From: Pogonophryne albipinna
Lineage: Eukaryota > Chordata > Actinopteri > Perciformes > Artedidraconidae
DNA: 64,000 bases
Direction: 5' to 3'
Assembly: GCA_028583405.1 (NCBI GenBank)
Contig: CM053253.1
Coordinates: 15,635,112-15,699,111, forward strand
How positions within the stretch are numbered: the first letter of the stretch is position 1; each line of letters begins with the position of its first letter. Below are positions 20,489 through 61,130 of the stretch, piece by piece. Below the pieces are notes generated by a model. The model ran no database searches and had not been told where the DNA came from. It was given only the letters and a program-made list of their open reading frames with translations. Position numbers and translations under genes: made by a program.

Positions 20489-20920
20489 TTAATTCGCAGA
20501 GAGATCAGGGAGCAGATATAATAAATGTAGTTTATCCAACATGGCTTTGTAAATGAAAAAGTACCAGTGACTGAGCCTCCGTACAGTAAGTGATGGCATA
20601 ACCGCCTTGGTATACAGGGTACAGTGATGCGTAAGTGCTTTACAATTTGTCAAAAATCTCAGTGCACTGTGATACGCAGCATCTAACTTGCTCAGGTAAT
20701 TGGCAGGTGCATTCATATATAACAAATCACCATAGTCCAGCACAGGTAAAAAGGTCACAGTGACTAGCCTTTTCCTGGCCTCAAGCGAGAAACAGGACTT
20801 ATTTCTGTAAAAGAAACCTAGCCTAACCCTCAGCTTTTTAAGCAGGTTATTTACATGAAATTTAAAAGTGAGACAATCATCAAGCCAGATACAGGTATTT
20901 ATAACAGGCAACCACTTCAA
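20489..20920 (-). pseudogene. LINE ORF2 C-terminal region, frameshifted
   Basis: This frame continues the reverse transcriptase ORF after a frameshift near 20900. It has the conserved LINE pattern WLDDCLTFKFHVNNLLKKL, then FLPVLDYGDLLY and AAYHSALRFLT. A further in-family piece with AFRCAAPLTWNSL is found at about 20330-20440 in yet another frame. Confidence 0.8.
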
Positions 20921-23123: not shown

Positions 23124-23932
23124 CCCAGATCTATAGCTTTAAAATCAGCAGGAGTAGCGATCTGACTACTACTACTGGGCGGACCAGGGTTAGGTTGTAC
23201 ATTTCCTGACAGTAATAACAACAAAAAAACCAGGCATCTTTTCCTCTTAAGCGATACACATACATTGTCATCTACTTTAGAATCACCGGAAAAGTCTGCG
23301 AGAGTGTGATTAGAGCTTAAGAAGCAGTCCTGAAGAACAATCATCGCAGGAAAACAAAAAAGACAAACATATTTTGTCGAGCAGATTGAATGTGACAAGG
23401 CAACCGGTAATTGTTTGTGTAACACATCCAAACCTTTGCAGGGGATGCCCACTGCGGGTGGCAGAACAGACCTGAATCCAGTAGACTCCTCAGAATGACT
23501 AGAGATCTTCTCATAGTCCAAAATAGTTAACAGGCACAGCAGAATCCCGATATGGGCCATTTCCCCAGACCAGCACACAGAATCCGCGATGTTCCTGGAG
23601 CAAAGGACAGACGAAAGCAGCAGCGTGGTATCCCCGGGGTGAAAGCAGGCCTCTGCAACAGCAGAACCAGGACAGGTGGAAAGCAGGCCCCAGCCGTGGT
23701 AAAATCCACCTCCGCACAGCAGCACACGCCCGGTGGAAGCAGGCCAAGCCCGAAGCGTGGATCCACTCCGTCTCTCCGCGACGACTCCGGGGTAAAAACC
23801 TCTCCAGTGCAGCCGTACTCTACAGGTGGGAGCAGGCCTCCGTAGATCGCAGATCGCAGGCAGCAACAGGTGGAGCCGCTCCGTCTCTTCGCGACGAGCA
23901 GGCCTCCGTAGATCGCAGATCGCAGGCAGCAT
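23105..23932 (-). pseudogene. LINE 5' ORF segment ending in an NPGP (2A-like) motif
   Basis: This frame precedes the endonuclease ORF and overlaps its start, with a one-base frame difference near 23115. Its C-terminal part has a hydrophobic leucine run followed by SGNVQPNPGP, then about 25 residues to the endonuclease. Many CR1/L2-type ORF2s carry this motif at the start. It resembles the 2A consensus ending NPGP, but the acidic residues before it differ. Whether it promotes ribosomal skipping is unknown. The first 120 residues are GC-rich 5' region translation and may not be coding. Confidence 0.5.
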
Positions 23933-30771: not shown

Positions 30772-32388
30772 TTAGCATTTTAAACAGACACTTCTGTAGT
30801 AACCATCTGTAATAATAATAACTTCACATATCACAATATGCAGAACATTTTCAAACATTAATTCAACCACAGTTGAAGTGACATAGTCCTCAATCCAAGC
30901 AGGCTGCTTTCTGATTCGCTGGTTCCTGCTCTGAGCACCATGCACTGTAGCTGGCTCAGCAGGCCTCACTTCTTCTGATGGAGAAGTGAATGTTTCTGGA
31001 AGCACCGACAGGTGTGAAGCATCCCAGGTTTTTCCATTATCAAGCGTGTAACTGTGAGGTCCTTTCTGCTGGGTCACTTTGAACTTTGGCTTTCCCTTTT
31101 TGACATGCAGCGGGTTTCTCACACGCACCAGGCTTCCCGGATGTATTTTGGGAATCTTGGCATTTCTTTTGGCGTCAGTGTATGTTTTCATGTGCCACTG
31201 TTTCTTTTCCACTCTGTCTCTCAGTTCCTGATCCTGAGTATCAGTAAGCTGTGGCAGGATTGAGAGTTTGGTTCGCATTTTTCTTCCATACATGAGCTGG
31301 AAAGGAGATGTCCCTGTAGTGGAGTGAGGTGTAGCTCTGTAGACCTGAAGAAACTCAGCAATGTGAGCTTTCCACGGAGCGTTCTCTCTCTGTGCAGTGA
31401 GAATGCTTTCCTTCAGCACTCTATTTAGCCTCTCCACCGCTCCATTTCCTTCTGGATGGTAGATTGTAGTCCTGATGTGTTGGATGTCTCTTTCTTCTAG
31501 GAAAAAGGCGAGTTCTGAAGATGTGAATTGTGGACCGTTATCTGTCACCACAGAGACTGGGTTCCCTTTTTGGCTGAACACTGATCTCATGAAGGTGATC
31601 ACTGTTGCAGTAGTGCATCTTGGGACAAAACACACTTCTGGCCATTTTGAATAGTAGTCAGTCATAGTAATAGCAAACTTACAGTCCACCGGACCAGTCT
31701 CAAAGGGGCCCACGATGTCGAGTGCAAGCTTTTGCCATGGCCCCTGAGGCAGAGGGACTGGTGTCATAGGTGCAGGGTTAGTTTTAGCTGTCTTATCATT
31801 CATCTGGCAGGACACACAGGCGGCGATAACCGATTGTACCAGTGCATCCATTTTAGGCCACCAATACAAGTCTCTGAGTCTCTGTTTTGTGCGTACAATG
31901 CCTTGGTGGCTCTCGTGTGCTAAGGACACCATGTGTGAGTGTAGCTTTACTGGAACAACTAACCTGTGACTCCCTCTCAGAATGAGTTGTTCATGTACAG
32001 AAAGTTCATTTCTCACCTGGTAGTACGGCAACATGTTAGCAGGCAGGCCTTTGGATGAAGCTGGCCACCCATCTGTCATGTAGTTGCGTAGCTGGCGTAA
32101 CTCTGGACAGGAAGTGCAGGCATCTGTGAAGTCAGACGAGGGAACAGCAGTCAGCAGGGCAGAGACAGCAGCAACAGTCTCTGGTTCCGTGTCTGAGGTG
32201 CAGTCCTGTCCGTGTGGCAGTGGCAGGCGGGAAAGGCAATCTGCTGCATGGTTCTGAGCACCGGGTCTGTAGACAATATCATAGTTGAAGCGGAGTAGCC
32301 TGGCAGACCAGCGTGCTACTCTCATTCCAGCTCTTCCCATGCCTTTTGTAGCCAAGAGTGTGGTCAAAGCTTGGTGATCAGTCCTTAA
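30772..32388 (-). pseudogene. Gypsy pol, RNase H end and integrase (after insertion)
   Basis: The frame resumes immediately after the TTAA element. It completes RNase H (TDHQAL, then RPGAQNHAADCLSRL) and encodes integrase: an HHCC zinc domain (AHESH and CVSC), the catalytic DDE residues in LDIVGPF, VVTDNGPQF and EGNGAVERLNR, then a C-terminal region. The integrase itself has no internal stop. Its role is to insert the retrotransposon DNA into the genome. Separated from the upstream half by 2.1 kb of foreign sequence, it cannot be made as part of the normal polyprotein. Confidence 0.9.
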
Positions 32389-34467
32389 AGAGCCTGTGAC
32401 AGCATCCCAACAACTGTTGTGCAATGAAATATTGGGCTACTAGTCATCTCGAACCGTCAGTTTAAAAAAGAAGATGCGATACCGTTCCGATAAATATCAA
32501 TAATTTCGAACATCGCGGGGAAATTCCTTCGAGTCATTTTGAAGTTTTGGGGGAAGCCGGAAGTGACGTCAATGCGGGAACGCTTCACTGTGCGGTGAGA
32601 GAGCGAAACACGGACAAAGTGTGTTGTCATGCGTAGAAATGGTGAATTACTGAGTTTAGGCACGTTAATAACGTTTTAATGAAGTTGACTACAGTATATT
32701 CATATTTGTCAGTGCTTTCATGTCAATTTGGCGAACATAAACATAAATGATCGTGGTGAAGATGATGACTAAATTAGGATTACAAAAAAGTGAGAGCTGC
32801 TGAATTTCCTCCCGTAGGATGTGATATAAAAACAAATCGATTATTTTTGTAGTTGTAAACTCAAGTGGATTAAACTACATTTATTAGTGCTTTCATGTCA
32901 ATTCGGCGAACATATGATACATTAAATGATCGTGAGAATGATGATTAAAAATCGTTTGTTTGAGCCGGTCTGCATTTCCTGATGAGAAAACAAACCGATG
33001 CTTTTTGTAGTTGTAGTACACCAACATGGATTAAATGTGTGTTTTTATTTACCACAATGTTGGGGAAATTAATGGATAAAATGCACGGATTATTATTATT
33101 ATTCCCACTCCGATCGGGACACTAGGTCCACCGTTTCCCCGCAGCGAGGCTCCCCCGTTGACAGTTTACGTGGGCTGGGTGCAGTGGCGGACTGGCCATC
33201 GGGACGAATCCCGATGGGCCGGTACCGAAGTGGGCCGGTCGGATAAGTCACTAGTACATCCCCATAGGCGGCGCGTGAGGCTCAGGTTTGGGAAGGCTAA
33301 ATAACTTCTTTTACCTGACGCTGCCCGCCTCCGGCGTCTATAGAAAAGAGATCAACTCAGTGTGCGGAGTTTAAATCTCTCAAGTTATATTACAGGATAA
33401 AGGAAATGCAGTTTAAACTGCCGTATGCAGAGAAGACGCCGACGTGTCGCACTTATCATTCATATTACATCATCAATCAGATCATCGATCATATAATATC
33501 ATAATATATCATATATTTCCTTATCCGAGTCAGCTTCTCCAGCCGTATCTGGCCGTGCAACACTCACAGTGTCACATACTGTATGCAGAAGTATTATTTT
33601 AAGCAACACATTATGTTGACGAAACACTCAAGTCAAATGTAATTAAAGTCAGATCCACTCGTGTCTTAGACGTGAACGCGCTCTCAGCTGGTGAGAGAAA
33701 CCCTGGCTTGATTTACCGAGTTAATAACCAGCGTCGTAGGACCGCTTAGCGAGATCTCGTTTGTTAGTTTGTTGTTGTTAGTTTTTTTGTTACTCAAACA
33801 TATCCAGGGTATGTTGAACTGGCTTCGTAGTACAGGGCACAGGTGGCTAGCAGCGCTAATGTCAAAGACACAGACATTATACATTATATTTGTATTTTAC
33901 CAGGATGCAGTGACACAAATATTTGGGAAGGCTTAGCCTTCCCCAGCCTACAGCACCCGCCGCCCCCGACATCCCCCACTCCCCCCGTTGACAATTTACT
34001 AGCGGTACCGAAGTGGGCCGGTCGAGTCCCGGGATGATTTTTAGTCCCAGTCCACCACTGGTTACATGACCGTATGATCGCCCATATTGACGCACCTAAT
34101 TCCTAAACTTCTAACAGATACAACATAAACCGATCCTTCAGCCTCATATGAGCTCTCAGACACGTTCAAAATTAAACTGTCATCGCTGTCTGAGCTTGCT
34201 GCTGTGTGCGCCATCGTGCGTTTACATGCAGATGCTGGGATCCTGAACGGTGCAGCTGAAGCGCTGTGCCCGCAATGACGTCACCCATAATTTGGCGGGA
34301 CTTGAAGAATCCCCGAGAAAATCCAGAAAATGGTCAACATTGAAGGGCAGATTAATGGTTATCAAAGTACAAATATCCAAAATCAGTTCAGTAACGGTTT
34401 TCAAGGGGACAATATTTACTCAAATTGATGGGTTTGGATGATGGGGGAAACTCGTGTCACAGGCTCT
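32389..34467. mobile_element. TTAA-target DNA element nested in Gypsy RNase H
   Basis: TTAA flanks the 2079-bp element at 32385-32388 and 34468-34471. The ends are inverted repeats with AGAGCCTGTGACA. Removing the element and one TTAA restores the retrotransposon's reading frame, so the boundaries are exact. TTAA targets occur in Kolobok and piggyBac; the termini differ from the Kolobok family at 41508-49200. No transposase frame is seen. It carries a second nested element (33182-34060). Confidence 0.88.
33182..34060. mobile_element. second-level nested element (CAGTGGCGGACTGG ends)
   Basis: CAGTGGCGGACTGG at 33182 is matched by the near-complement CCAGTCCACCACTG ending at 34060. A 22-bp direct repeat (CGGTACCGAAGTGGGCCGGT and two more bases) at about 33222-33243 and 34004-34025 flanks its middle, indicating yet another insertion or duplication inside. 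I could not find an 8-bp target duplication outside the ends. Confidence 0.5.
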
Positions 34468-36601
34468 TTAAGGTGAACTTTGTTCCCCACAAGTAGGTTC
34501 TCCAACGCTCTGCAGCCCACACACAGGCCAAAGCTTCTTTTTCTACCACAGAGTACTTTCTCTCTGCAGCACTAAGAGAGCGGGAAGCAAATGCCACTGT
34601 TCTTTCAGTGTTGTCAGGATGTATCTGTGTCAGCACCCCACCTATGCCATAGTCTGAGGCATCTGTAGACACTATGGTGGGCAGTGACGGGTCAAAAAGA
34701 GCAAGTGATGAACTGTCTGTGATGAGTAGTTTAACCTGCTGAAAACTACTCTGTGCCTCATCAGTCCATGTGAATGTAGCTCTGCGTAGCACATCTCTCA
34801 TTGGTTCCACCACAGTTGCATAGTTCTGTATGAACTTGGAGTACCACGATGTTAGGCCAAGAAAAGACCTAAGAGTCACTGGATCACTGGCTGATGGAGC
34901 ATCCCGAATAGCAGCAATGTGGTCATCGTTTGGCAGCAGACCTTCCTTGCTTATGCTGTGTCCTAGATACGTTAGTTTGTCCTGGTAGAATTTGCATTTA
35001 TCTGTGTTGAGACTTAGTCCAGCTTCCTGCAGTCGGTACAGTACTGCTTTCAGGCGGGTTTCATGCTCAGCACGGCATGAGGAGTAAACGATGATATCAT
35101 CCAGATATGCCTGCACTCCAGGTAAATCTTTCAGCACCATGGACATCATCTTCTGAAACGCTGAGGGTGCTGATGCTAGCCCATAGCAAACTCGCTTGTA
35201 CCTGAAGAGTCCCTCGTGAGTAATGAAAGCAGTCAGATCTCTGCTGTCCTCATGCAGTGGAAGCTGGTAGTATGCATTAGCCAGGTCGAGGGTTGAGAAT
35301 ATGGTAGCTCCTCTGAGTTCTGAGAAGAGCTCCTCCATGTGTGGAATGGGGTAGCAATCCATTATGACAGCCTTGTTAGGCTCCCTGAGGTCTGTACACA
35401 TCCTTATTTTAGATGAGTTCTTTCGTTGAATCACAACAATCGGTGATACCCAGGGAGAGACATCTATTTTTTCAATGATGTCAGCATGAAGAAGGCGCTT
35501 TAACTCTGCAGAAACAGCATCTCTGACTGAGAACGGAAGCCTTCTCAATTTCTGCTGCACAGGCTTCACATCATCTTTCACTTTTACTTTGTGTACAACG
35601 TTCCTAACACAGCCCATAGGTAAATCTGTATTAACAGGTGCAGATGAAATAGGTGTCGGTGTAGTAGGAGTTGCAGGTGGGATTGTTATCTCTCTGACTG
35701 ACTGCTCTGACTTCAGTACCACTCTGTTTCTCATGATGACCATTTCCAGTGCCTCAAACAGGTCCAGGCCCAGCAGTATTGAACCTGACTTCACAATGAA
35801 AAGGGTAGCTGAGGCAGTATTTCCGTCATGGAATGCACGTAAATGCAGTTTCCCTAGTACTGGGATTCTCTGTCTTGAGTATGTGACTATAGGAACCTTT
35901 GTAGGTTTCAGTGGTATGTGACTGAAGTAGGTCTCGTACACATGAGCAGGCAGCAGTGACACTGAAGAACCAGTATCTACCATCATCTCAAATGACTGGT
36001 TAGCAGGAGAAAGTCCCAAATCTACAGTGCACATTATTTTCTTCTCTTTTGGGGCAGTATTATTCAGCAATAAAACAGTCAGTTCTGGAATAACGACCTC
36101 CCTCACTTCACGTTTTTGTTCTGAACGACACACTTTGGCAAAATGCCCAGTTTTTCCACAGGATTTGCATATTTTGTTTGTAGCAGGGCATTGTGTGGAA
36201 TTGGCCATATGTTTATCTGAATCACATCTGTAACATCTTCGTGCTTGCTCAGACTTTCTCTCACCTTTCCTTTGTTTACTTGCAGCGGGAAGTTTTTGTT
36301 CCCATTTTGGCGCCCTGATCTCTCTCACAGGCACTTCACTGTTGGAGAACTCGGCCACGTTGCGCACCGCCGTTTCCACCTGATTTGCAATCTGAATGGC
36401 TTTATCCAGTGTCAGTTTGTCTTCTAGCAGCAAGCGTTCACGTATGCGTCCACTGTAGGCTTTTTCCACAATCTGATCACGCAGCATATCCTGTCCTGCA
36501 TTTCCAAATTCACACAAAACGATAATTTCACGTAGCGCAGAGACGTACTGTGCAATTGTTTCATCATGTCTCTGGGCTCGTTGGCGGAACTTGTGTCGCA
36601 A
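34457..36601 (-). pseudogene. Gypsy gag-pol, capsid end to RNase H (interrupted)
   Basis: A 714-residue open frame. It holds the end of the gag capsid region, two zinc knuckles (CYRC at 123-126 and CKSCGKTGHFAKVC at 145-158), aspartic protease with the intact DTGSS active site (209-213), and reverse transcriptase with CTDLREPNK (402-410), TLDLANAYYQ (437-446) and catalytic YLDD (499-502). RNase H begins with VSTDASDYGIGG. The frame is broken in RNase H by the TTAA element, and its start is joined to the upstream gag frame by a shift near 36590. Confidence 0.93.
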
Positions 36602-41503: not shown

Positions 41504-41507
41504 TTAA

Positions 41508-41542
41508 AGGAGGGGTAGGCAAGTTTGAGAAACCGGCTCGAG
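41508..41542 (+). repeat. left terminal inverted repeat
   Basis: 35 bp, identical to the reverse complement of 49166-49200; ends with GAAACCGGCTCGAG. Confidence 0.95.
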
Positions 41543-41670
41543 ATACACTTTTTGTTATATTCCATGGAATGCTCTTAACATCCCGATAGCAATGCATATC
41601 TTAAGTGCTTTGACAAAAAATCCATAAAAAAATTTCATCTGTGGAAGCCGTAATACTGTAAAAAGTACGA

Positions 41671-41705
41671 CCAATCCGTTTAGCCGGGCCGGCTAAACGG
41701 ATTGG
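41671..41705. repeat. perfect 35-bp palindrome, subterminal
   Basis: Two 17-base arms (CCAATCCGTTTAGCCGG and its complement) around a single G. Extended to 61 bp in the derivative at 55951-56011 and kept as 27 bp at 37344-37370. Its conservation suggests a function in transposition or expression; inferred. Confidence 0.95.
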
Positions 41706-41841
41706 ATTGCCGCCCTGTCTGTCAGCCTTCCATCTCGTGCACGCACAAATGTATCTCGTGCCCTCATTGGGCGTGACGTCATTGGGCGTGCATTGCAGCA
41801 GTACTTCAATGACTCACCAGCAACAGGCGGCCACTTTCACC

Positions 41842-44800
41842 ATGGCAGAGTTACGTTCAACATCGTCTACTGGTCGCAAAAGAAAAAATGTAACGGAGCA
41901 AAATAAGAACAAAAAGAAAGTGGAAACTAGGAGAAGTCAAACCAGAGTCAATATCGGAGTTGCTTTTCAACGATGGCGACAACTGATGGAACACACCGAG
42001 TTGAAATCTGATGCCATGGTCGCTCTTTTTCTCTTGGACAGGTAATTATCTGTTTTGTATGGTTTACAATTCCCCTGAACTATATAGCCAACCTAAGTTT
42101 TAGCAGCTCATTTGTAAAACACTTTAAATTGCCGACGAGTATGAATTGTGCTATTTTAAAATACACTTAGCTTGCCTCGCCTTGCTTCACGCATAGACAT
42201 AGAACGTTTGTTTGTTATACATAAAAAAGTAAGTGAACATGTAAGTAGCAGCCAGTAGTGTGTGAATGTATATGACGAAATGCTCGTCTTTATCAGTTTT
42301 GAACAGGACGTGTGGTAATGTATGTTTTCTGTGCCTTTTTGTAGTTACGAGAAAAATGTATCAAGTTCCAACACATGTTCACAGCTCCACATCATGGCAT
42401 TGCTCATGCACCTGGGGTGAACAAGTAAAATCAAGGTGTGAGCAATGGGAATGGAGGTAGGCCATTAAGAACCATCTCAGGCAAAGGGTCAGAGAAACTA
42501 ATTATCATAGAGAACAATAGAAAGTCTGCAGACCTGATTGCATTAGAAGCCTAGTTCATAGGTGTCAAAGTAAATATGGCTACATTTGGAGATGCTTGTG
42601 GCTCAGGCCTACACAATGAACCCGAAGTATGTTCAACATGCTTTGTCACTGCTCTTCAACCATGTGAAACATACATTTTTTATTAAACTAACCAAAGACT
42701 GGTATTCTATCTATTTAGCAACCGTCCTATGTTGTGTCCTTTAGAGAATGAAGAACCATTTTATGTCCAGTAAACAGATTCAAATGCAATTATGTAATTA
42801 TTGTCAATTTTACATTTTTGCAGAGATGAACAGTTCTCAGTAGAAAGTATAGAGGAGTTGGACAACAGTGCTCAGGAGACTGCTCTTCGCAAATTGGATG
42901 CAAGGTATGGTAATTGTAGTGAGAGATGGTGTTATATTAAATTAAATATTTCCCAGGCACACATTTTAAATAAAGTCTTGGTCCATGCTTTACTTTAGTG
43001 AGCTGTGGTCATGTGACATCCTGACAATTGTATTTCTTTTTGTCTGTTTAGTATGTCCTCACAAGACCTACACATTGGCCTCATCAATGCTGATGAATTC
43101 AACGACATTCAAAACTCGATGTAAGTTATGCTTCATATGGGCTGTGCCCACTAACAGCTCAGCTACTGCCAGTTCCCCTGCTGCACTTCAGCCCAATGTT
43201 GTAACTTATTGTCTAGATAAATATCTGAAATTATTATTTCCCCCCAGTATTGACTGGGAAGATGACTCATGGTGTCCTGACAAGGACACAGAGTCTGTGT
43301 CATCATTAGAGGAAGATGAAACCAGGGAAGTGGACTCGAACTCTGCTAACAGTGAGGATGAAGATTACGTGCCTCGTATTTGTGTGCGGTAGGTTCAACA
43401 CCGTTTGGCACAGCTTATAGTCAATTATTTTCTGTTTTTTTTTCCATTTTTCATAGCTATTTTTTTTTTTTAACAGGACTGGAGGTTCTATAACGACACA
43501 GATTAACTTGAATGCACTGCCGGCTATTAGCATGGAGGACTCTGTGTACGACAGTATAGATGACACCCAAGATCCTACAACTACAACAGATACATTTCCA
43601 GAGAAGGCTAATGTCCAGGTTGAGGATGACATAATCGGCCATCCTGCATCCATTGTGTATCATGACAGTGTCCACCAACTGGCCAAATATCTGGTTCTGC
43701 CTGTGAACATGTGCACCGCTAAGGACCCAACAACCAATTTCGAGTGCCGTGCTCCTGGGCCATTCGAAATCAGTGTCAAGTCCAGGGGCACAGCAGCAAT
43801 CGTTGAATGGGTGTGTATTTGTTTGGCATCATTTGGCATTACAAGTTTTGGACTGATTGCTGCATACGTGTCATACAAGCAGTAGTAATTGTTGTTTAAA
43901 GTACTGTGCTGTCTTCTCCACCTATGTCTTTTTTTAGATGTGTCTTCATGGTCACACTGTATGGAAATGGTGTTCCCAGCCCACTTTAAAGTATGGGATG
44001 CTGGTTGGGGACTTCATGTTGGCCAGTAACATACTGCTCTCTGGCAACAACTATGCCAAGATTTCACTACTATTCCGGTTCATGAACATGGGGATGGTGG
44101 ATAGGTCCTCCTTCTTCAAAATCCAGGACTACTACTGTGTGGACAGTATAAAGGACTTCTGGAACGAGAAGAGGGCCAAACTCATCACCCAGCTTCACCC
44201 TAAAGGGCCTGTTGTGATCTTGGGTAAGTTGGAGACACACACTAGCACAAACTATACACCATGGTATATAACTGTATTTGTTCCCCAGAAGCAGTATTAG
44301 CAGGGCAGATGCAAAAATAATTTAAAATAAAGTTCAGTAAAGAACTCAAAAGTAATTGTGTGAAAGTAGAAATATAATGCAATCAAATGTGCCCAAAATG
44401 TCAGTCCAGTATTTATTTTATTGGGGTTGAGCATAATTTCTACTCTTCATGTTGAGTGTGAGCCTATACCAGGCAACTTTTGCTTTTGAAAAGATGTGAA
44501 TCAATATTTTCAATGTTGTTGTTTTTGTGTGAGATACAAAACGCTAGGCTGACCTAAGGTTGCTCAGTGTTTCATGCATTTTGAGCATCATGCAATTGAA
44601 TGTTTATCGCAATATGGAACTATGTAGTTATCCTTTTTTGTTCTCATTTCGATTCAAAGGAGATGCTCGGATGGACAGTCCTGGATTCTGTGCGCAATAC
44701 TGCACATACACTGCCATGGACAATGACTCCAAAAACATAATCTGCATGATCAACCTTGACAAGCGTGAAACACAGAGAAATTCTGTTATAATGGAGAAGG

Positions 44801-47204
44801 AGGGCTTCATGCGTGCCATTAATACACTTCGTGAAGAGCTGCATGTGACAGAAATTTGCACAGATGCTCATACGCAGATATCAGCCCTCTTCAGTAAGTG
44901 GATAAAATGTAGTTTTCTTCAGGGGTTTGTTGCAGCAAGTCCCAGACTACATTCATCACTGCATTACTATGACTGGACATAGTCAAATATGCTAGGTTAT
45001 TACATAGCATATTTGTTTCATGACTTGTTTTTGTCCTTCAGGCAAAGGGGACTTGAAAGATAGCGGAATCCACCACTCTCTGGACATCTGGCATGGGTCC
45101 AAAAACTTGGGCAAAAAAGTTCTGACCGTAAGTCCATGATCTCTCAAAATAAAGATAGATAAATAAATAGATATGCTGTACTTCATTGAAATCATCTACA
45201 TCAACCCTGTTTTAATAAACCCAGTTTACGTCCCATAACAAACATTTTGTTCAATGTCCAGGCAGGGCAGCAAAAGGGGTGCTCCATACTACAGATGTGG
45301 AACAAGGACATCTGCAACCACTTCTGGTACTGCTGTAAAACTGCCGACCATTATGAAGACTTCTTTGTAAGTATTACAAAACAAATATCATCAAATGAAA
45401 TAATTTATAATAATGTAATACAATTTAAAAAGCTCAGAAATCAACATGCAATCAGTGCCTGATGCCATTTCCTCATCCATAACTATCATTTTCAGAGTAA
45501 TGTAATTGCTGATATACAGGGCATTTAGTTTACACCATTATGTCAAACGCTGCATTTATGTAAAGGTGACTGAGATTTAGCAGACGCTTTTAGCCAGACA
45601 CAGACTCGGAACATTCAGGAATCAAACCCGTAAACATACCAAGCGGTGACACTAACTGTTGATCTACTCATGCCTCCGCCTTATGGGAGTTGTTGTACCA
45701 AATGGTAACATGTATATATACTAATACTTTGGACAAAACATCAGAATAAAAGTGCTCGCTAGACCTTGGTCAACAGGTCGGATTCTTTTTCTGACTGTTC
45801 ACCTGTGGTTTGTGCAAACTGGGCTTGCTCGCTTGCTGACCTCAGAATTCACAACACATTTCTATCTGTTTTTTCTCAGGACATGTGGACTGGACTCCTG
45901 CACCACGTCACAGGAGAACATTCATGGGCCCTTGGAGCCTGTCACCATGGCCCCTTGTTGGAGAGCAGAGAGAAGGAGTGGATCCAGCAGGGCTCCGTGG
46001 CACACCAGAGTCTTACTGATATCATTCTCAATGCACGTTGGCTTAAAAACGTCCACAAATATCTGCGTTTCAGGTATACCAGCCAAGGTCTATGTTCAAG
46101 TGACTGTTTTCCCATACGTCAATACTTCTGTGTTATTCTGAATTTGGTGCTTTTATGCATCAAATTGTATAACCAGAAAAAAAATAATGTATATTGTTTT
46201 CACTGTGCTCTCAGATCAACTGCAGACCTGGAGTCCTTCAATAATCACATTCTCATGTATGCAAGCAAGCGCTTCAGCTTCTCTCCAACGGTATATGCAG
46301 CTCGGACACTGCTGGCTGGCCTGGACTACAATCACCACATCCACAGACCAGCAAAGAGAAAAAAAGATGGCTCTATTCAGTATGTTGTAATAATATTACT
46401 CCTATGCATTTTAGTCTATTACCTTATAGGTGCTTAGTCAAGGCTGATCCAATGCTATGAAAAATAAGCATTGTGGAAGTACAAACTACTGTGCCATGTA
46501 CGGTCATATGAACATTTCACTAATGTGTAACTTTTCTTTTATGGCAGATACAGGAAGTTGTACAACAAAAGGTCCAGGGCGTGGAGGTTGCACACATTGA
46601 AAGTAGAGAAGGATTACAGCTACATCCCCGACCTCCAGAGCGCTATCCTGCGGCGAAGATTGTCTGCAACCAAGGGGATGCCAAGGATCAGAGCCAAGAG
46701 GCCAGACGATCCCCGTCAACATGGGGTTCTGTCAGGTGCCCCTGCACCAACCACCCAGGAGCTGTTGCAGAAGCAAGTCAGCAGAGGACTAGGTGAGTTG
46801 TCTTACGATAATGTAGATTGATCATCAAGCGGTAACATTCTAGCAAAAGCTAGTTTAAAAAAAAGTGTCGACATTTATGCCAGGTTCCACAAAACATCAT
46901 CAGTTTCTAAACCTCAGAGCTACTAATTATGATCTACAAGAGTTATCTCAACAAAGTAATGGCTCAACCATATGCAAGTGTGTCCTTAGTCCACTAAAGA
47001 GTCTAGTCGTTTTGCTTTTCAAATCATCTTTGGACCCACAATAGGTATGACATTGAAAAGTGTTTTTCACTACATGAAATGCTGCCAAACTTGCAGTGTT
47101 GTCTGTCTTTGGCAGTAATGCGGGTGTTGTTGATATGCTGTAATTACTGTCATATATGTAATTGTGATATTTATTTTAAAGGACAATCACTGCCCAAGGA
47201 ATAG
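41842..47204 (+). CDS. Kolobok-type transposase, 13 exons, 720 aa
   Basis: Exons: 41842-42041, 42824-42904, 43052-43120, 43248-43388, 43477-43810, 43938-44223, 44660-44893, 45042-45127, 45262-45366, 45880-46073, 46215-46379, 46548-46792, 47182-47204. All introns are GT/AG and the coding sum is 2163 bases without a stop. The start is ACCATGG. The N-terminus is basic, then an acidic stretch (about residues 115-160). The core has GDARMDSPGF (371-380), TDAHTQISALF (438-448), HSLDIWHGSKNLGKK (460-474), then NHFWYCC, HGPL and DLESFNNH (581-588), matching the Kolobok transposase pattern. Candidate catalytic residues are D372, D439 or D463, and E583 (inferred). No THAP domain is seen. It would excise and insert the element at TTAA. 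Confidence 0.88.
45565..45690. repeat. dispersed repeat fragment in transposase intron 9
   Basis: The phrase ATTTAGCAGACGCTTTTAGC through CAAACCCGTAAAC resembles a repeat common in fish genomes; a shorter relative (ATTTAGCAGACGCTGTCTAG) is near 48693. Old fragments only. Confidence 0.5.
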
Positions 47205-47388
47205 AGGATTGGCCCAGCACCAATATGCAACGTGCACATCCTGTCCTGTAATCAACAGCCTGGAAACCTCTGCCGACACACCATTTCTTCCTTTGTGTAC
47301 ATATGATGTTTATAGTTGTTATATAATGTATATATCTTGTAGATTATAATATTCATGCAATATTGAATATTTGATGGTGTTCCAATAT

Positions 47389-47394
47389 AATAAA
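47389..47394 (+). terminator. polyadenylation signal of the transposase gene
   Basis: AATAAA 185 bases after the stop codon. Confidence 0.65.
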
Positions 47395-47498
47395 CAGGTT
47401 TCATAACACATTTGGTTGTCGTCGTTCGTACATAAATAATAAATGTAATCGCTTCATTGTTTATGCTAAAAGGAAAAGGCATTAATCATTTTAAAGAT

Positions 47499-47504
47499 TT
47501 TATT
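47499..47504 (-). terminator. polyadenylation signal of the ballast-domain gene
   Basis: AATAAA on the minus strand, 83 bases after the stop codon at 47587. The two genes end about 100 bases apart, so their transcripts converge. Confidence 0.6.
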
Positions 47505-47586
47505 TAAACAAGTTTGACGAAAGTGCAGAACATAAATAGTGAATTATTTTTAAAGAAATATTGTGATTGCACTTATGACTGTGAGC

Positions 47587-49036
47587 TTATACCCTACTGG
47601 GGATGAAGCCTTTGTACTGTCCATGTGAATCTGGGTACCGGTCTCGTATCTTCCAGACACAGCAACTGGGTATAATCACTCTGTGACCCTGTCCCAAGGC
47701 TCCATATTGCCACACAACAAATTGTCTGTATGCTGCATAGCGGAACTGTTTGTTGCTCTCCCCTGTGTCTTGAACATCAGCCACTGCCCGGATATCGTTC
47801 CAGATCCGTCTTGCAAGGCGCAGGACCCCCTCCTGCAAAATATACACTTCCATGTGTGGAAGGCTGGAAACACAGGAGTCATGAGGTTGCCCACAGCACT
47901 TCCTTTCCACATCTGTGGACATTTCTCTGCAGTTATGGCAGAAACACCAACTGGGTTGACCTTCAACAGGAGGGCCAGGTGGAGGCGCATCTGATGTGAA
48001 GCGGAGGAGGTCAAACATCAGACTTGGGTCCCGTGTCAGGCAGAGCTCCAGCAGTTGATGGGATTGCTGTAAGGACAGTCCTTGAATTCTCGCCTATAAA
48101 GCAATAGATCACAAAGTAATATCTTTATTGAACAGAGCTTTATTGTCCACAAAGAGGTCTTGTGTGTCCACAGAGAAGCCACTGACTAAGACAAGAGTTA
48201 TTGGTGGTGTTGAGGTAAAAAAATAAATAATGTAAATATATGCTTCTATACATACTGTTGTACACCAGCTACACACACCTGTTCCTCTGCAATCCTTTGA
48301 GCTTGCAGATCCTCAACTCTTTGAAGGTCCTCTTGACCAAGACTCGTCTTAGTCTGACCTCCCCGTCCTCTTCCTCTTCCTCTGCCTCTGCCTCTTCCTC
48401 GCCCCCTCGTTGCTCTCGCACGTCCTCCTCTGGTTCTTCCCCGGGCCACTCTGCTTTGACCAGATGTGCTGGGTTCTGGAGTGTACTCAGTGTCAGAGGA
48501 AACCATGCTCTCATCCTGGATGCTCTCATCCTGGAAGCTCTAACAAGCGAAACAAGAGATTATAATATTATAATTATGAATTATTATAATATTATAATAA
48601 TTATTATGAATGAATTATAATATGAAATCCACGTTCTTCAATGTGTCACCGATGATAACAGAAACAAACGGCAGGTAGCATTTACATGTACTCATTTAGC
48701 AGACGCTGTCTAGCGTAGCTAGGTAATTAGGTACTGTATTTAGTTCGTCAACAAACATAATAGATGAATACGCTAAATATTTCAAATAAACATTAAAAAC
48801 CAACTTGGGCTGTGTAGTATTGCTAACCTAGATGTGTTTAGCTTTGCCTGATATGTAACGTTACTGCAGCCTGCTCTCGCCAGCTAGCCAGAAATAATTT
48901 ACTTATTTTTAATACATTTTCCCAAAACAAACATGCTAGCTTAAAAAATATAAGCACTGACAATAACTTTGTTCCTTTTTTACGTTCATTATTATGATAA
49001 TCTTAGGTGTTGTTTTCTTACATCTGATTGAGCCAT
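47587..49036 (-). CDS. RG-rich protein with P2X7-type ballast domain, 3 exons, 260 aa
   Basis: Exons on the minus strand: 49036-49022 (five codons from ATG), 48539-48279 and 48093-47587; GT/AG introns and a 783-base sum without a stop. Residues 6-36 are acidic and Ser/Thr-rich. Residues 37-66 are RG-rich, with an uninterrupted RGRGRG run at 50-65. A helical linker follows to about 135. The C-terminus matches the cytoplasmic ballast domain of P2X7: WCFCHNC (141-147), CCG (158-160), RYAAYRQFVVWQYG (210-223) and PSCCVWKIRDRYPDSHGQY (234-252). In P2X7 this domain binds zinc through cysteines and a guanine nucleotide. There is no channel segment here. The role in the transposon is unknown; nucleic-acid binding through RG repeats is an inference. 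Confidence 0.88.
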
Positions 49037-49165
49037 GTTTTCCCAAGATGCTCAAGTCTGCTGACGTCATGTGCGCGTTCATGTGTGTTGGAGGAGGTGC
49101 TCTGTAAGGAAGTCTGAAGGAAGGGGCGGATTCTTTTCGGCTGTGTACTTTCAAATGTTAGTGCA

Positions 49166-49200
49166 CTCGAGCCGGTTTCTCAAACTTGCCTACCCCTCCT
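49166..49200 (-). repeat. right terminal inverted repeat
   Basis: 35 bp, reverse complement of 41508-41542, followed by TTAA. Confidence 0.95.
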
Positions 49201-49257
49201 TTAACAAACCTGTTACAAATGTGTTGTTCAACAAATTTTAGCCTTTGCCACATTTAT

Positions 49258-54319: not shown

Positions 54320-55237
54320 AACGGGTTATTTGTTTAAAAAGTTTGTGTAGTGCTCAGAGCACATGGTGTCATTGAGCAGCTGATTCATTGTTGTGGTCCA
54401 GCTGTGTGCTGGCTTGTCGCTGCTATTTGGGGGACACATCATGTCTTTTGGGTTTCAGGAAGCTGTAGTGTTTGACATGTCGTCAGGTTTTGTGTGCCAA
54501 TCAGAAGGTAAGATGTTGCTGTTTGTTACGCTTTTGTAAAAGAGATTTTCCCCGCTAGGCTTAAGTGGCATTTCCCCTTGGGTTGCGTCTGTTTTTTTTT
54601 TTTTTTCATAGTGTTGTGGCGACGTGGTTAGTGTCAGCTGTTTTCGGACAGCTTTCTCGGGGGCACGTCCGCGTGAGTTCTTGGTGTTACCTGCGTGCAG
54701 GTCGCTCCATAACTCCGCCGGGTTCCAGTGCGTAATTACCCACCGCAAGCCACATGAAGACTAGGTGAGATTAGGAAGATTATGTTTAGGAAGTTGGGGG
54801 GAAATTCTCTGTTGGGTTAATCTTATGCCCATGCGTGTTGGCAGTTTAATACTTTGCTTTCTGATTGGCTATTATGACTTCTTTGTCAGCGTTTGTGGAT
54901 GCGCCCTCAGTGTCTTTCTTAGATGATTGCCAGAAGGCGCAGTTGGTCGAAATAGCAGAGCACTATGACATTGCTGTTGTGGGGAGCAAGCGGAAACATG
55001 ACATTAAAGGTGGGGTAGGTAAGTTTCAGAAACCGGCTCGAGTGCACTAAAATTTGAAAGTACACAGCCGAAAAGAATCCGCCCCTTCCTTCAGACTTCC
55101 TTACAGAGCACCTCCTCCAACACACATGAACGCGCACATGACTTAGGTTGGCTATATAGTTCAGGGGAATTGTAAACCATACAAAACCTGTCCAAGAGAA
55201 AAAGAGCGACCACGGCGTCAGATTTCAACTCGGTGTG

Positions 55238-55671
55238 TATGGGGGTTATTCCCTATCTTTATTCAAGAGCGTGGTATTTACATTTGAGAGCATACTTTAT
55301 TGATTTCCTTCACTCAAACCCTGTCATCGCACCAAAGACAAACCAAAGAGTAACCGCCCTTACGGGACGCTGTAATAAGTAAAACAAACGCACCCGCAAG
55401 GACACCTGGCCTCCTATTGGTTGAGGGATTTTGACAGGATTGTTGCACAAAAGTTTCGAGCGCGCAGAGAATAAATCTGAGAGCAGAACAAATCTGTAAA
55501 CAGCAATATATCTGAGTGCAAGCGTACAATTTGAGCAGAAGCAGAGCAAATCTAAGTGCAAGCAGGCACTATTTGAGTGCGAGGACAGGGTTTGAGGGAA
55601 ATAAATACATAAAGTATGCTCTCAAATTGAAATACCACGCTCTTGAATAAAGATAGGGAATAACCCCCATA
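55238..55671. mobile_element. 434-bp MITE with long TIRs, TSD GGTGTG
   Basis: Starts TATGGGGGTTATTCCCTATC; the last 90 bp are the near-complement. Flanked by the exact 6-bp repeat GGTGTG at 55232-55237 and 55672-55677. The complete Kolobok copy near 41993-42002 shows the uninterrupted site, confirming boundaries. Superfamily unassigned. Confidence 0.9.
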
Positions 55672-55840
55672 GGTGTGTTGCATCAGTTGTCGCCATCGTT
55701 GAAAAGCAACTCCGATATTGACTCTGGTTTGAATTCTCCTAGTTTCCACTTTGTTTTTGTTCCTAATTTGCTCAGTTACATTATTTCTTTTGCCACCAGT
55801 AGACGATGTTGAACCTAACTCTGCCATGGTGAAAGTGGCC
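55560..55840 (-). pseudogene. orphan transposase exon 1 copy
   Basis: On the minus strand AELGSTSSTGGKRNN through VNIGVAFQRWRQLM matches exon 1 of the transposase at 41842-42041. The MITE cuts it before its donor site, and no other exon is left. Non-functional. Confidence 0.85.
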
Positions 55841-55950
55841 GCCTGTTGCTGGCGAGTCATTGAAGTACTGCTGCAATGCACGCCCAATGACTGCACGCCC
55901 AATGAGGGCACGAGATACATTTGTGCGTGCACGAGATGGAAGGCTGACAG

Positions 55951-56011
55951 ACAGGACGGCAATCCAATCCGTTTAGCCGGGCCGGCTAAACGGATTGGAT
56001 TGCCGTCCTGT
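55951..56011. repeat. perfect 61-bp palindrome
   Basis: Two 30-base arms (outer part ACAGGACGGCAATCCAATCC) around one G. Longer than the 35-bp version in the complete element, whose left arm has lost about 11 bases. Confidence 0.95.
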
Positions 56012-57173
56012 CGTACTTTTTACAGTATTACGGCTTCCACAGATGAATTTTTTTTTTATGGATTTTTTGTCAAAGCACTTAAGATATGCATTGCTATCGG
56101 GATGTTAAGAGCATTCCATGGAATATAACAAAAAGTGTATCTCGAGCCGGTTTCTCAAACTTACCTACCCCCCCTTTAAAACTGTCATTGTGTCATCTTT
56201 GTTTGAGCAGGGGGTGTTGCAGAAGAGTGAGTCTGGTGCGGCAGGGTTCGTGCCGGTAGTGGTTCAGACAGCTGGTTTGACGTTCGAGCAGCAAAAGGAG
56301 CTTTTGGCCATGCAGTTTGATCAGGAGAGATTGCAGTTGGAGTTGAAGTTGGAGCAGGAGAAGTTGGAGTTGAGGGGTCAGCAGCAGGAGGTAGAGAAGC
56401 GTTTAGAGGTGGAGAAGGTGCTGGAGGTGGAAAAGATGAAATGTGAGGTGGAACATGCTAGATTACGGCAGATGGGAGAGGGCAAGTTTTCTCCAGGGGA
56501 GGATGGTGGTGATAGGTCGGCATCAGGCAGTGGCGATATCATTTCTTACTTGCGATTAGTGCCAAAATTCAATGAGCGTGACCCGGACATTTTTTTCACT
56601 CTATTTGAACGCATAGCAGAGGCAAGAAACTGGTCAGATTCGGACAGAGTGCTGTTACTTCAGTGTGTACTCACTGGGCGAGCACAGGAAGCTTATTCAG
56701 CTGTTTGTGGCGAAAATGCTTTGGACTATGATAGAGTAAAATCAGCGGTGTTGAAGTCTTACGAACTGGTTCCTGAAGCGCATCGTCAAAGGTTCAGAAG
56801 TTGGGTCAAGGGAGATAAGCAGACACATGTGGAGTTTATCCGTGATTTAACTTCTCATTTTCAGCGGTGGTGCGCGCCAGCAAAGGTTGCAAGTTTTGAC
56901 TGTCTTTGTGAGCTCATTGTCTTGGAACAATTTAAAGACATTCTCCCTCAGCGTGTGGCCACTTATGTGAATGAACAGAAACCTTCCACCGCGTTTAGAG
57001 CTGCTGAATTAGCGGACGATTTTGTGTTGACACATAAGGGCAGTTTTACTGAGAAGTATTCTAGGGGTGATTGGAAACGTGGAGAAGACAATGGCTATGC
57101 CCGCGGTGGTGCAAAGTTTTCACCAGGCTCCTCCCGTAGATTTGTAGGTACAGGGTGACCCGAGGGGGCCAAA

Positions 57174-57797
57174 GTGGACCTATGTCATTATCGCAGAGGA
57201 GGGGGTCATTGGAAGGAGCAGTGTCCGTTGCTGGAAACTAAGGGGAAGCCTCGTTTGTCACCACATGCTCCAGCCATGTGGTGTTCTGCCGTGTTGGATA
57301 AAAAACCGTTGGGTGTAGGCTCGGGCATGGTGCCTGATAAGAAGCCGGTTTGTGCCGACCCGGATGCGGGTTCTGGTTTTGAGCCGTTCATCACTGAAGC
57401 TGTTGTATCAGTAGTCGGTAGTGACAAATATGTACCGATTAAGGTGTTGCGTGATACAGCGGCTAGATACTCATTCATTGTTGAGTCAGTGTTGCCTTTT
57501 TCGTCAGAGACAGAAACGGGGGATTTTTTGCTGATGAGGGGCATGGAGATGGGCTTGATCCCTGTGCCACGGCATACAATAGTGCTGGATTGCGAGCTGG
57601 TGCGGGGAGTTGTGTCTATCGGCGTGCGTCCCGCGTTGCCACTTGATGGGATACATATGATTTTGGCAACGATCTCGCTGGTAGTGCTGTGTGGGCTGGT
57701 GTGCCACCGCCTGTGGTGGTTTCCATGCCGGTGGCATCTGGGGAGCCAGATGAGAGTGGTTTGCAGTTTCCAAGTGTGTTTCCAGTTTGTGCTGTGA
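57174..57797 (+). pseudogene. Gmr1-like zinc knuckle and protease, mutated
   Basis: The frame starts with a knuckle-like DLCHYRRGGGHWKEQC in which the expected second cysteine is arginine (CGC for TGC). Protease follows, with VLRDTAARYSFI where the active-site DTG is DTA. A frameshift near 57665, after DGIHMIL, leaves the following pol sequence to the next frame. All three changes argue that the copy has long been dead. Confidence 0.7.
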
Positions 57798-58204
57798 CAC
57801 GTGCACAGAGCCGTAAAATGTCTGCTGACCCACATGTTTCGGAGTGTAGCAAAAGTAATGTGGTACATGTGGTCTCACTGCCTGATCTCCCTTCGTCGGT
57901 GTCAAAGGAGGACTGGGTCAGGAGTCAGAAGGACGATTCATCTCTTTCTGCTCTGTGGACTGAGTTGTTGCCGGCAGAGAAGGTCAGAGACATAGCCCAG
58001 GGTTACTTTGTTCAGGGGGACTTGCTGGTGCGTAAGTGGGTGCCCTGTGTTGGTGATGCTGTGGGGGAGGCAATTTTTCAGGTGGTGGTGCCGAGTAGCT
58101 TTCGTGATGTGATATTGCAAACTGCGCATGATAGTGGTGGACATTTGGGGATAAAAAAAACCTATGACCGTGTCCTACGCTATTTTTTTTCTGGCCTCGG
58201 TTAA
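57689..58204 (+). pseudogene. Gmr1-like integrase N-terminal region
   Basis: After a linker (DLPSSVSKEDWVRSQKDD) comes the start of the integrase zinc domain, TAHDSGGHLGIKKTYDRVLR. The frame breaks in a run of eight T near 58182-58189; the next frame supplies the CHICQ half of the HHCC motif. Confidence 0.8.
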
Positions 58205-58914
58205 AGCGCGATGTTGCAAGTTATATTAAAGCATGCCACATATGTCAGTTCACTGGTAAACCAAGTCAGGTGGTGAAGCCTGCACCCCTCAGTCCCATTC
58301 CAGCCCTTGGTCAACCTTTTGAGCATTTGATCATAGATTGTGTGGGGCCGTTGCCTCCATCTAAGTCCGGTTGTGCGTACATGCTTACTATAATGTGCCA
58401 GACTACAAGGTATCCTGCAGCGTTTCCCTTGCGCTCCATTTCAGTGAAGCCAGTAGTTAGGGCTTTAACCCAGTTCATCTCCACATTTGGGATCCCACGT
58501 GTGATTCAAAGCGACCAGGGTACCAACTTTACTTCCCATATGTTCAAACAGATCCTACAGCAGCTGGGGGTCAGGCATAACCGTGCGTCGGCTTACCATG
58601 CCCAAAGCCAGGGGGCGCTAGAGCGGTTTAATCAAACATTGAAGTCCATGCTGCGTGCTTATTGTATGGGGAAGGACTGGGAGGAGGGACTTCCATGGCT
58701 CATGTTGGCGTCCAGGGAAGTCGTTCAGGAAAGTACAGGGTTCAGCCCTAATGATTTGGTCTTTGGGCATAAGGTGCGTGGTGTGTTATCTGTTCTCCAG
58801 GATGGTTTGGTTGAGGGTGAGCCACCTAAAAATTTAGTGGACTATGTACAGGGCTTTCGTCATCGCCTGTATGTAGCGGTGGAAATGGCAAGGAAAAATT
58901 TAGCTGGTGCTCAG
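58205..58914 (+). pseudogene. Gmr1-like integrase catalytic core
   Basis: Open from the CHIC pair (about 58237) through the core. The DDE residues are in IIDCVGPL (D near 58336), IQSDQGTNFTS and SQGALERFNQ. The core ends at LAGAQ, where the hAT element has inserted (target GTGCTCAG at 58907-58914). Coding resumes at 59952. Confidence 0.88.
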
Positions 58915-59943
58915 TAGGGCTGCAACAAACGACTAATTTGATAATCGATTAATCTATCGATTAATGAAACGATTAATCGATTATTCGGATCGTTAAGGTT
59001 TTAACTGTACTACTACTTATATCGATACTGCTTATCGATCCGGTCCTTTTAACGATAGTATTAACGGTTCTTTTGACAAGAAATAAGGTAAATTAACTAA
59101 ACAAATTGTGAACAAAACTAACATTGCATTTTATTTTAATTAAATAAATAATATTTCACATCAAAAGAAACAATGTTTTAACAAATCATATTAAATAATC
59201 TGATGACAGAACTGTAAACAGAATGGCTGAAACTTTAACAAAATAAATAACTCAGTTACCTCTAATCATCAACCTATGTTTTTATAACTGAGTTAACTCC
59301 GTGTGCTGCTGCTAGCATACATAACACCTGACGTGGAAACGTTACTCGTGGATGGGGCTGCAGAGCTACTAGAAAGACAGTGGAACCCGGTGCATTCCTC
59401 CGTCTGGATGTGGAGCACTTTTGCTAAATGTTTAGACAAATTTGCTCGTGTTACCGCCCTTACATGCTAAACTCTTATTGCACTTTTGGTAACGAGCATT
59501 GTCCACATCGAGACGGCTAAAGTTTAACCACACCTCGGAGCGCGTTCTCTCCGCCATCTCCTCCGTGTCTGTGTTGCTGCATGTAGCAGAGCGTGTGTGT
59601 GTAAACTGCCCCGCCCCCTCGCAAGCAGGCGGGGGAGAGATCTCTCGTCTGAATTGGGAAGATCGAAAATACATTATACTGTAGACGCATTTTGTAGTCA
59701 TATTGCATATTATAAACGGAGTTGGCGACACTAAGACTGCGATATAATGTTTATGTAGCAATAATACATATGACATATGTTTTAAATGTCTCCTGTACCG
59801 ATAAAAAAGAGCGATAACGTTGGAGCTTAACGGGGTGTAGAACACATGTGATGACGTCACTAACGAATCGACGACTGAATTAGTTGCCAACTAATTTGGT
59901 AATCGATTTTAATCGATTAAGTCGATTAGTTGTTGCACCCCTA
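58915..59943. mobile_element. hAT-type MITE in Gmr1 integrase (TSD GTGCTCAG)
   Basis: Exact 8-bp duplication GTGCTCAG at 58907-58914 and 59944-59951. Ends TAGGGCTGCAACAAACGACT and GTTGCACCCCTA. Sister of 17714-18772, sharing most of its interior. No transposase. Removing it with one duplication restores the integrase frame. Confidence 0.95.
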
Positions 59944-59951
59944 GTGCTCAG

Positions 59952-61130
59952 GCTAATATGAAGAGACTCTATGACCGTAAAGCAGAGTATCGTGAATTCA
60001 GCCCAGGGGATCAGGTGTTGGCTTTAATGCCACTGCAGGTCTCACCATTCAAAGCCAAGTTTGCCGGCCTGTACACTGTTGAGAGTAAAGTGTCAGATCA
60101 AAATTACTTGATTGCTACTCCAAATCGGAGGAAGTTGTCTCAACTGTGTCACGTCAACCTCCTGAAACCGTACTATATTCGTGATACCGTTGGGGATAGC
60201 TTCATGGCTAAAAAGTTGGGTGTGGGCCCCATAATGATGGTTGATTCTGTGCTTTCAGATCGAGGGTTGGCTGAGGAGTGTGATGTTAAGGCACCAGATG
60301 AACCTGTTATGTCTGGTAGGCTGAGGAATTCGGAGTCGTTATGCCAATTGGATCGCTTGTTGAGTCACTTACCGGCAGCACAGAGAGATGAATTGGCGGC
60401 TTTAATCGGGAAGTTTGTGGTACTGTTCGGCGATACGCCATCGCGCACAATTCTCGTGGAGCATGATATCGACGTGGGGGACAGTCCTCCAATTAAGCAG
60501 CGAATTTATCGTTGTCCTGCCGATAAGCGTAGGGTGCTGGAGACTGAGGTCCAGTACATGTTGGACAATCAGATTGCAGTACAGTCGTTCTCCAGTTGGG
60601 CGTCGCCTAGTCTGCTGGTTGGCCAATCAGATGGGTCTCCGCGGTTTTGTAACGACTATCGTAAGGTTAATAAGGTGACAAAAACAGATTCTTACCCGTT
60701 GCCACGGATGGAGGACTGTATTGACTTGGTGGGCTCTGCTAGATTCGTCAGTAAATTCGACTTGTTAAAGGGGTACTGGCAAGTTCCTTTGACAGCGCGT
60801 GCGCAAAAGATTTCAGCGTTTGTTACACCTTTCGGTCTGTATGAGTATACAGTGATGAGTTTTTGGCTTTGTAATGCGCCAGCGACATTTCAGCGCCTCA
60901 TGAACATGGTGGTAGCAGGCCTTGAGGGGGTTGCTGTTTATCTTGACGACGTAGTGGTGTTTAGTGACACATGGGATGACCACATCAAACGCATTGGTGC
61001 TCTGTTCTGTCGCCTGGCTGAGGCGCATCTCACTGTTAACCTGGCCAAGTGTGAGTTCGCTAGGGCGACAGTGACTATCGCGCCTTTTGTAAGCACTTCT
61101 CCACAGTGGTTGCGCGCCTGACTGATTTGC
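59952..61130 (+). pseudogene. Gmr1-like integrase C-terminus and reverse transcriptase, truncated
   Basis: Begins with the integrase tail (MKRLYDRKAEYREFSPGDQV and CHVNLLKPYY), then reverse transcriptase: IKQRIYRCPADKRR, CNDYRKVNKVT, FVSKFDLLKGYWQVPL, NAPATFQRLMN and catalytic YLDDVVVFSD. After KCEFARATV the frame jumps: a deletion brings in FCKHFSTVVARLTDLL, the connection region before RNase H, in a neighbouring frame. The copy ends there. The fused IN-RT order is as expected for Gmr1. Confidence 0.88.

What the first reader, a model, noticed from the sequence alone, without database searches (positions are those of the whole stretch)
41508..49200. A Kolobok-type transposon carrying a P2X7 ballast-domain gene
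Seen: perfect 35-bp terminal inverted repeats and TTAA duplications enclose a 13-exon transposase and, convergent to it, a separate 3-exon gene whose C-terminus matches the P2X7 cytoplasmic ballast domain. Known: in P2X7 this domain follows the channel and binds zinc and a guanine nucleotide, and ballast-like sequences outside P2X7 have been reported. Inference: the domain may have reached a P2X receptor from such an element or the reverse, or it may be a working part of the transposon. Both genes are open through all splices, so it may be active or recently active.
Basis: partly seen in the sequence, partly recalled or inferred. Interest (0 to 1): 0.92.

Follow-up and report, generated by a model that had tools for sequence, protein, structure and literature searches.

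The report
Jumping gene carrying P2X7's tail domain
A fish genome holds dozens of near-identical copies of a jumping gene that encodes a likely transposase plus a second protein sharing the tail domain of the P2X7 cell-surface receptor; this kind of element, and its likely role as the source of that receptor domain, was already published in 2022, so this is a well-preserved new example and not a new kind.

The parts
41504..41507 (.). TTAA target-site duplication, left
41508..41542 (+). left 35-bp terminal inverted repeat
   Evidence: 100% complementary
41671..41705 (.). subterminal palindrome (17-bp arms, 1-bp centre); role unknown
   Evidence: I9; also read in the derivative at 55964-55998
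41842..42041 (+). transposase exon 1 (start codon)
42824..42904 (+). transposase exon 2
43052..43120 (+). transposase exon 3
43248..43388 (+). transposase exon 4
43477..43810 (+). transposase exon 5
   Evidence: genome copies
43938..44223 (+). transposase exon 6
44660..44893 (+). transposase exon 7 (likely catalytic D372 and D439)
45042..45127 (+). transposase exon 8 (DxxH, D463/H466)
45262..45366 (+). transposase exon 9 (H497, C501, C502)
45880..46073 (+). transposase exon 10 (C533, H535)
46215..46379 (+). transposase exon 11 (likely catalytic E583)
46548..46792 (+). transposase exon 12
47182..47204 (+). transposase exon 13 (stop)
47587..48093 (-). KolX-like gene exon 3: ballast domain (stop included)
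48279..48539 (-). KolX-like gene exon 2: acidic/Ser stretch and RG-rich tail
49022..49036 (-). KolX-like gene exon 1 (start codon)
49166..49200 (-). right 35-bp terminal inverted repeat
49201..49204 (.). TTAA target-site duplication, right
55008..56175 (.). 1,168-bp non-autonomous derivative of the family (TTAA on both sides), without either gene

Best explanation
The element at 41508-49200 is a two-gene DNA transposon, most likely of the known Kolobok Kol0 lineage, that occurs at dozens of places in this fish genome and encodes, beside a predicted DDE transposase, a KolX protein homologous to the P2X7 ballast domain. Shown: inverted ends, TTAA duplications, both open genes, near-identical copies at different sites. 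Inferred: the transposase cuts the element out at its inverted ends and pastes it into TTAA. Inferred: KolX is a small helper in which the zinc-cysteine ballast fold is a rigid protein-protein or DNA-docking module and the RG-rich tail binds nucleic acid, assisting end recognition, complex assembly or nuclear delivery of the transposase. Inferred and already published: an ancient KolX was fused to a P2X4-like gene to give the tail of P2X7.
Confidence: 0.82

Rival explanations
1. The ballast gene is a recent capture of a host gene (P2X7 or a nanor-like gene) by one transposon copy.
For: The domain is shared with the host's own P2X7, which among the 150 scored matches is the single strongest (C6:7670446-7670847, 198.8 bits).
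Against: 25 of 27 near-full-length exon-5 places have a convergent KolX match; the pair is likely linked in other species (Mugilogobius consecutive locus tags WMY93_012473/012474; Ptychodera and Dissostichus pairs on contigs of equal length); P2X7 is a separate, long-branched clade.
Confidence: 0.03
2. KolX is selfish cargo or a regulator (for instance a repressor of transposition or of host silencing) and not a transposition helper.
For: 10 of 17 complete copies lost transposase exons 2-5 and the start of exon 6, and 7 of those 10 keep an intact KolX; 23 of 48 KolX places have no exon 5 nearby. Zebrafish nanor was hypothesised to act in transcription regulation (PMC7016195 section 14).
Against: Young copies keep a gene without selection, so retention alone says little; no regulatory target is known.
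Confidence: 0.25
3. The element belongs to piggyBac, the other TTAA superfamily; [quoted passage not shown]
For: TTAA duplications.
Against: Termini are 5'-AG...CT-3' (RR/YY), the published distinction from piggyBac (PMC9587614 section 3); DxxH present; Mutator-like Pfam match (E up to 1, best 5e-7) in 13 of 38 homologues; all eight cysteine positions kept, whereas the piggyBac proteins are said to lack most of them.
Confidence: 0.02

Closest known systems
Kolobok DNA transposons, Kol0 lineage with KolX (Kojima & Bao 2022, Mob DNA 13:24, PMC9587614)
   Same: TTAA duplications, RR/YY ends, DDE transposase with DxxH, second gene KolX = ballast fold, proposed source of the P2X7 tail and Nanor
   Different: A fish family that I could not match to a named one (Repbase could not be searched): its exon map, transposase-deleted derivatives that keep KolX, RG-rich tail and copy census are not in the sections and passages I saw; the paper's supplements were not readable
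P2X7 receptor cytoplasmic ballast domain (PDB 6u9v and others)
   Same: Predicted fold and cysteine positions
   Different: No channel domain passes Pfam's cut-off; R574 and K583 of the rat guanine site are V and D; RG-rich tail added
NANOR and other standalone ballast/ZCD proteins (Rump et al. 2020, PMC7016195)
   Same: Short proteins with a C-terminal ballast domain
   Different: That paper's main text has no word beginning 'transpos' and reports fewer than 10 such genes per species (section 11); here I assign 48 places in one genome to one family
Harbinger transposons with a Myb-like second protein (recalled, no call)
   Same: Two-gene element with a small helper protein
   Different: Unrelated transposase and helper (recalled); comparison is of working principle only

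Membership tests
Kolobok superfamily | TTAA target-site duplication | tested here: met
   window and 16 of 16 complete copies
Kolobok superfamily | termini 5'-RR and YY-3' | tested here: met
   window AGGAGG...CCTCCT; 16 of 16 copies begin AG and end CT; definition from PMC9587614 section 3
Kolobok superfamily | DDE triad with C/DxxH between second D and E | tested here: met
   D372, D439, D463xxH466, E583 conserved in 37-39 of 39 sequences; catalytic role assigned by motif, not assayed
Kolobok superfamily | zinc finger between C/DxxH and last E | tested here: inconclusive
   H497 (37/39), C533 (38/39) and H535 (38/39) conserved, C501 (28/39) and C502 (30/39) less so; metal binding not tested
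Kolobok superfamily | RNase-H-like DDE fold | tested here: met
Kol0 lineage | second gene KolX with ballast fold | tested here: met
   Pfam P2RX7_C above cut-off, predicted fold
Kol0 lineage | transposase groups with Kol0 in a phylogeny | not tested
P2X7 receptor | P2X channel domain upstream of the ballast | tested here: not met
   only P2RX7_C passes its cut-off in the 260-aa protein
P2X7 ballast domain | zinc-coordinating cysteines | tested here: met
   8 of 8 rat positions examined are Cys in the window protein; zinc binding itself not tested
P2X7 ballast domain | guanine-nucleotide residues R546, H547, R574, R578, K583 (rat) | tested here: not met
   R546 and R578 kept; Y at H547, V at R574, D at K583 in the window protein; the fish P2X7 of this genome also lacks R574 and K583 (I and S)
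piggyBac | termini unlike the RR/YY of Kolobok | tested here: not met
   termini are RR/YY

The most novel reading that the evidence does not exclude
KolX is a self-favouring transposition factor: an RG-tailed, zinc-ballast nucleic-acid-binding protein that helps mainly the copy that makes it, so selection keeps it even in derivatives that have discarded the transposase; the P2X7 receptor's tail is then a domesticated nucleic-acid or transposase docking module, and this fish family, still near-identical across dozens of sites, would allow that to be tested directly.
Probability: 0.15. Interest if true: 0.75.

Novelty: new member of a known kind. Interest (0 to 1): 0.42.

Why it matters
The nucleotide and zinc sites of the P2X7 ballast domain are described as of unknown function (abstract start of PMC9859053 in the listing). 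A young transposon family with an intact gene for the same domain gives a second, simpler setting in which to ask what the domain does. It also warns annotators: standalone KolX-like genes are filed as 'P2X purinoceptor 7' in several public fish proteomes, which can mislead receptor studies.

Tried and rejected
Host-gene capture by a single copy: rejected, since the pair recurs across the genome. P2X7-to-transposon direction: disfavoured by distribution, not excluded by the trees. In the IQ-TREE run the root is by midpoint and the P2X7 branch is long; a FastTree run in the same call joined the four P2X7 to the L032-family KolX and P0051 among the non-fish KolX with weak support (0.755). piggyBac: rejected by termini and motifs. 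Guanine-nucleotide binding by KolX: not supported, two of the five rat residues are replaced in nearly all of the 33 non-P2X7 sequences (V in 32 and gap in 1 at R574; D 28, E 2, N 1, gap 2 at K583), in line with the published remark that only R546 and R578 are conserved in invertebrates, whose authors nevertheless think GDP binding possible (PMC7016195 section 11).

Rows left out of counts: one search gave 33 rows; 27 are near-full-length at 99-100%; I set aside two places at 88%, two pieces at one place on C8 (98-99%, partial, the nearest KolX about 12 kb away) and two pieces on C9 (87-93%). Of the 27, C11:26139884 and C3:33075373 have no KolX match within 6 kb. One search scored 150 of 375 candidates: 1 is P2X7, 48 I assigned to this family (46 by score, 2 fragments by position), 101 are shorter C-terminal matches. 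I looked at 3 of those 101 (L030, L031, L032). L032 has a convergent transposase 27% identical to the window's (E 1e-33) and ballast exons on the other strand; L031 has only a weak piece (E 3e-4); L030 gave no tblastn match to the transposase and its motifs were seen by eye. No TIRs were found in the three within the 6 kb fetched, beyond inverted repeats that I did not take for ends, so their type is unproven; the L032 piece scans below cut-off as Mutator/MULE, the L030 piece as nothing.

L014/L015, first taken for a 660-bp miniature element (note), is one foldback whose two flanks are inverted copies of each other (300 of 300 bases) and match the left flank of copy L016 over the last 60 bases: an inverted duplication or an assembly error. 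L009 (right part missing) and L018 (large insertion, runs off the stretch) were left out of the complete copies. The 20 fetched loci were the first 20 of the ranked left-end hits, so older or end-damaged copies are under-represented. Transposase scan against Pfam: nothing up to E 1. Selection test on the transposase: no signal. Dating in years was not attempted. The host species was not established; by identity the nearest hits are Dissostichus for KolX (96% over 64%) and Champsocephalus for the transposase (89% over 59%), while the transposase hit with the best score is a loach (69% over 98%), so a notothenioid fish is only suggested.

Full report
What is there. The window holds a 7,693-bp element at 41508-49200 with perfect 35-bp terminal inverted repeats and TTAA on both sides. 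On the plus strand 13 exons (41842-47204) with GT-AG introns encode an open 720-aa protein. Convergent to it, on the minus strand, three exons (49036-49022, 48539-48279, 48093-47587) encode an open 260-aa protein. The splices are predictions from sequence.

Known already. Kojima & Bao 2022 (PMC9587614; abstract, sections 3 and 10, and passages of sections 12 and 16) state that the Kol0 lineage of Kolobok encodes a transposase and KolX, that KolX resembles the P2X7 cytoplasmic ballast, and that P2X7 originated by fusion of a P2X4-like gene with KolX; Nanor is called a likely domesticated KolX. Rump et al. 2020 (PMC7016195; abstract, sections 11 and 14 and search passages) found standalone ballast proteins across animals without linking them to transposons. 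In the held library 'KolX' occurs in that one 2022 paper, and 'P2X7' with 'ballast domain' and 'transposon' also only there; 'Kolobok' with 'P2X7' occurs in one further paper, a review that I saw only in the listing. Two other papers with 'Kolobok' were seen as search passages only and do not bear on KolX (PMC10256766; PMC11075544). The finding is therefore a new member of a published kind.

Copies in the same genome. The window lies in G000 (1.07 Gb). The first 100 bp of the element gave 116 candidates, of which 40 were scored: 34 identical, 6 at 99%, the window included. Of the 20, 16 are complete with both ends, all 16 in TTAA duplications with different flanks; L009 is partial, L018 is broken by a large insertion, and L014/L015 are one foldback. 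Pairwise divergence among the 17 complete copies, the window included, is 0.05-1.36%, median 0.29%. By alignment to the window, the transposase reads open in 6 of 17 (window, L010, L011, L016, L017, L023); L020 has a frame and splice defect; the other 10 share a loss of about 1.73 kb that removes exons 2-5 and the start of exon 6. The junction has two clearly different forms, about nine bases apart on either side (6 copies; 4 copies, one of these with a single-base variant): either two events at nearly the same place or one event altered later; unexplained.

KolX in the copies. With 28 further short stretches, 48 loci were examined; 3 (L009, L014, L015) hold no KolX region. Of the 46 aligned sequences (45 loci plus window) 34 have an intact KolX with all splice sites, and 18 of the 34 encode one identical protein, from which the window's differs at residue 71. 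Of the 12 others, L018 runs off its stretch and L034, L056 and L060 match over part of the region only. Exon 5 of the transposase occurs near full length at 27 places with 99-100% identity, and 25 of them have a convergent KolX match within 6 kb, some of these matches being fragments; 23 of 48 KolX places have no exon 5 nearby. Seven of the ten deleted copies keep an intact KolX (L013, L024 and L028 do not).

Selection. Using noncoding changes of the same copies as a mutation spectrum, KolX shows 30 amino-acid-changing and 19 silent differences where 78% changing is expected (one-sided p 0.0065; 46 copies) and 7:7 in the 17 complete copies (p 0.027). The transposase shows 28:6 (p 0.89), and 8:3 in the 7 undeleted copies (p 0.49). 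Copies are related, the test was chosen after the fact, four comparisons were made, and the transposase does not follow, so this is a hint only.

Relatives and P2X7. The homologue searches gave 68 KolX-like proteins and 228 transposase-like proteins (120 listed), each from the roughly 8,000 best candidates. In Mugilogobius chulae a KolX and a transposase bear consecutive locus tags (P0014, P0119); in Ptychodera flava (P0036, P0182) and Dissostichus eleginoides (P0001, P0157) a pair lies on contigs of equal length, hence likely the same contig. The tree of 37 ballast sequences (31 of the 68 homologues, window, L032 family, 4 P2X7) puts the 4 P2X7 in one clade (100/99) on a long branch, outside the 11-row clade that holds this family (99/99); the root is by midpoint and deeper forks are mostly open, and FastTree placed P2X7 differently with weak support. 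The donor direction therefore rests on distribution and on the published argument. The host's own P2X7 ballast exon is at C6:7670446-7670847.

Mechanism. Shown: near-identical copies with both genes in TTAA duplications at many sites. Inferred: cut-and-paste by the DDE transposase; KolX as a zinc-stabilised helper with a nucleic-acid-binding RG tail. The alternative that KolX is a regulator or cargo stays open, because a derivative without it also sits in TTAA duplications (55008-56175) and because its retention in young copies needs no selection.

Noticed in passing
window 55008-56175: 1,168-bp non-autonomous derivative of the same family with TTAA on both sides: about 135 bp of the right end and about 500-590 bp of the left end, plus (by eye) a nested insertion at about 55249-55668 bounded by its own inverted repeat; by eye it sits in a retroelement-like coding region.
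   Followed up: partly
L012, L013, L019, L021, L022, L024-L028: Internal deletions of about 1.73 kb with two clearly different junctions only about nine bases apart; convergent deletions or a hot spot, unexplained.
   Followed up: partly
L030, L031, L032 and 98 further places: 101 shorter matches to the C-terminal part of the ballast domain; in L032 a distant convergent Kolobok-like transposase (27% identity) lies opposite a ballast gene whose domain is split by an intron.
   Followed up: partly
L014 (C23:618969-619628): Foldback of the family's left end whose flanks match the left flank of copy L016 over 60 bases, 400 kb away on the same contig: rearrangement or assembly error.
   Followed up: partly
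P0001, P0004, P0015, P0016, P0024, P0027 and others: Standalone KolX-like genes are named 'P2X purinoceptor 7' (or '-like') in public fish proteomes; a Dissostichus transposase-like protein is named fructose bisphosphatase (P0157).
   Followed up: no
P0075, P0092, P0094, P0113, P0116, P0117 and others: Transposase-like fish gene models that also carry C2H2 zinc-finger Pfam domains: fusion genes or annotation joins.
   Followed up: no
window 20880-23138 (-), 30772-36601 (-), 56109-61121 (+): Long open frames that look, by eye, like a LINE and two LTR-retroelement polyproteins: the window is a transposon-rich stretch.
   Followed up: no
window 41671-41705: Perfect palindrome with 17-bp arms inside the left end, also present in the derivative at 55964-55998; possibly a protein-binding or hairpin site.
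   Followed up: no
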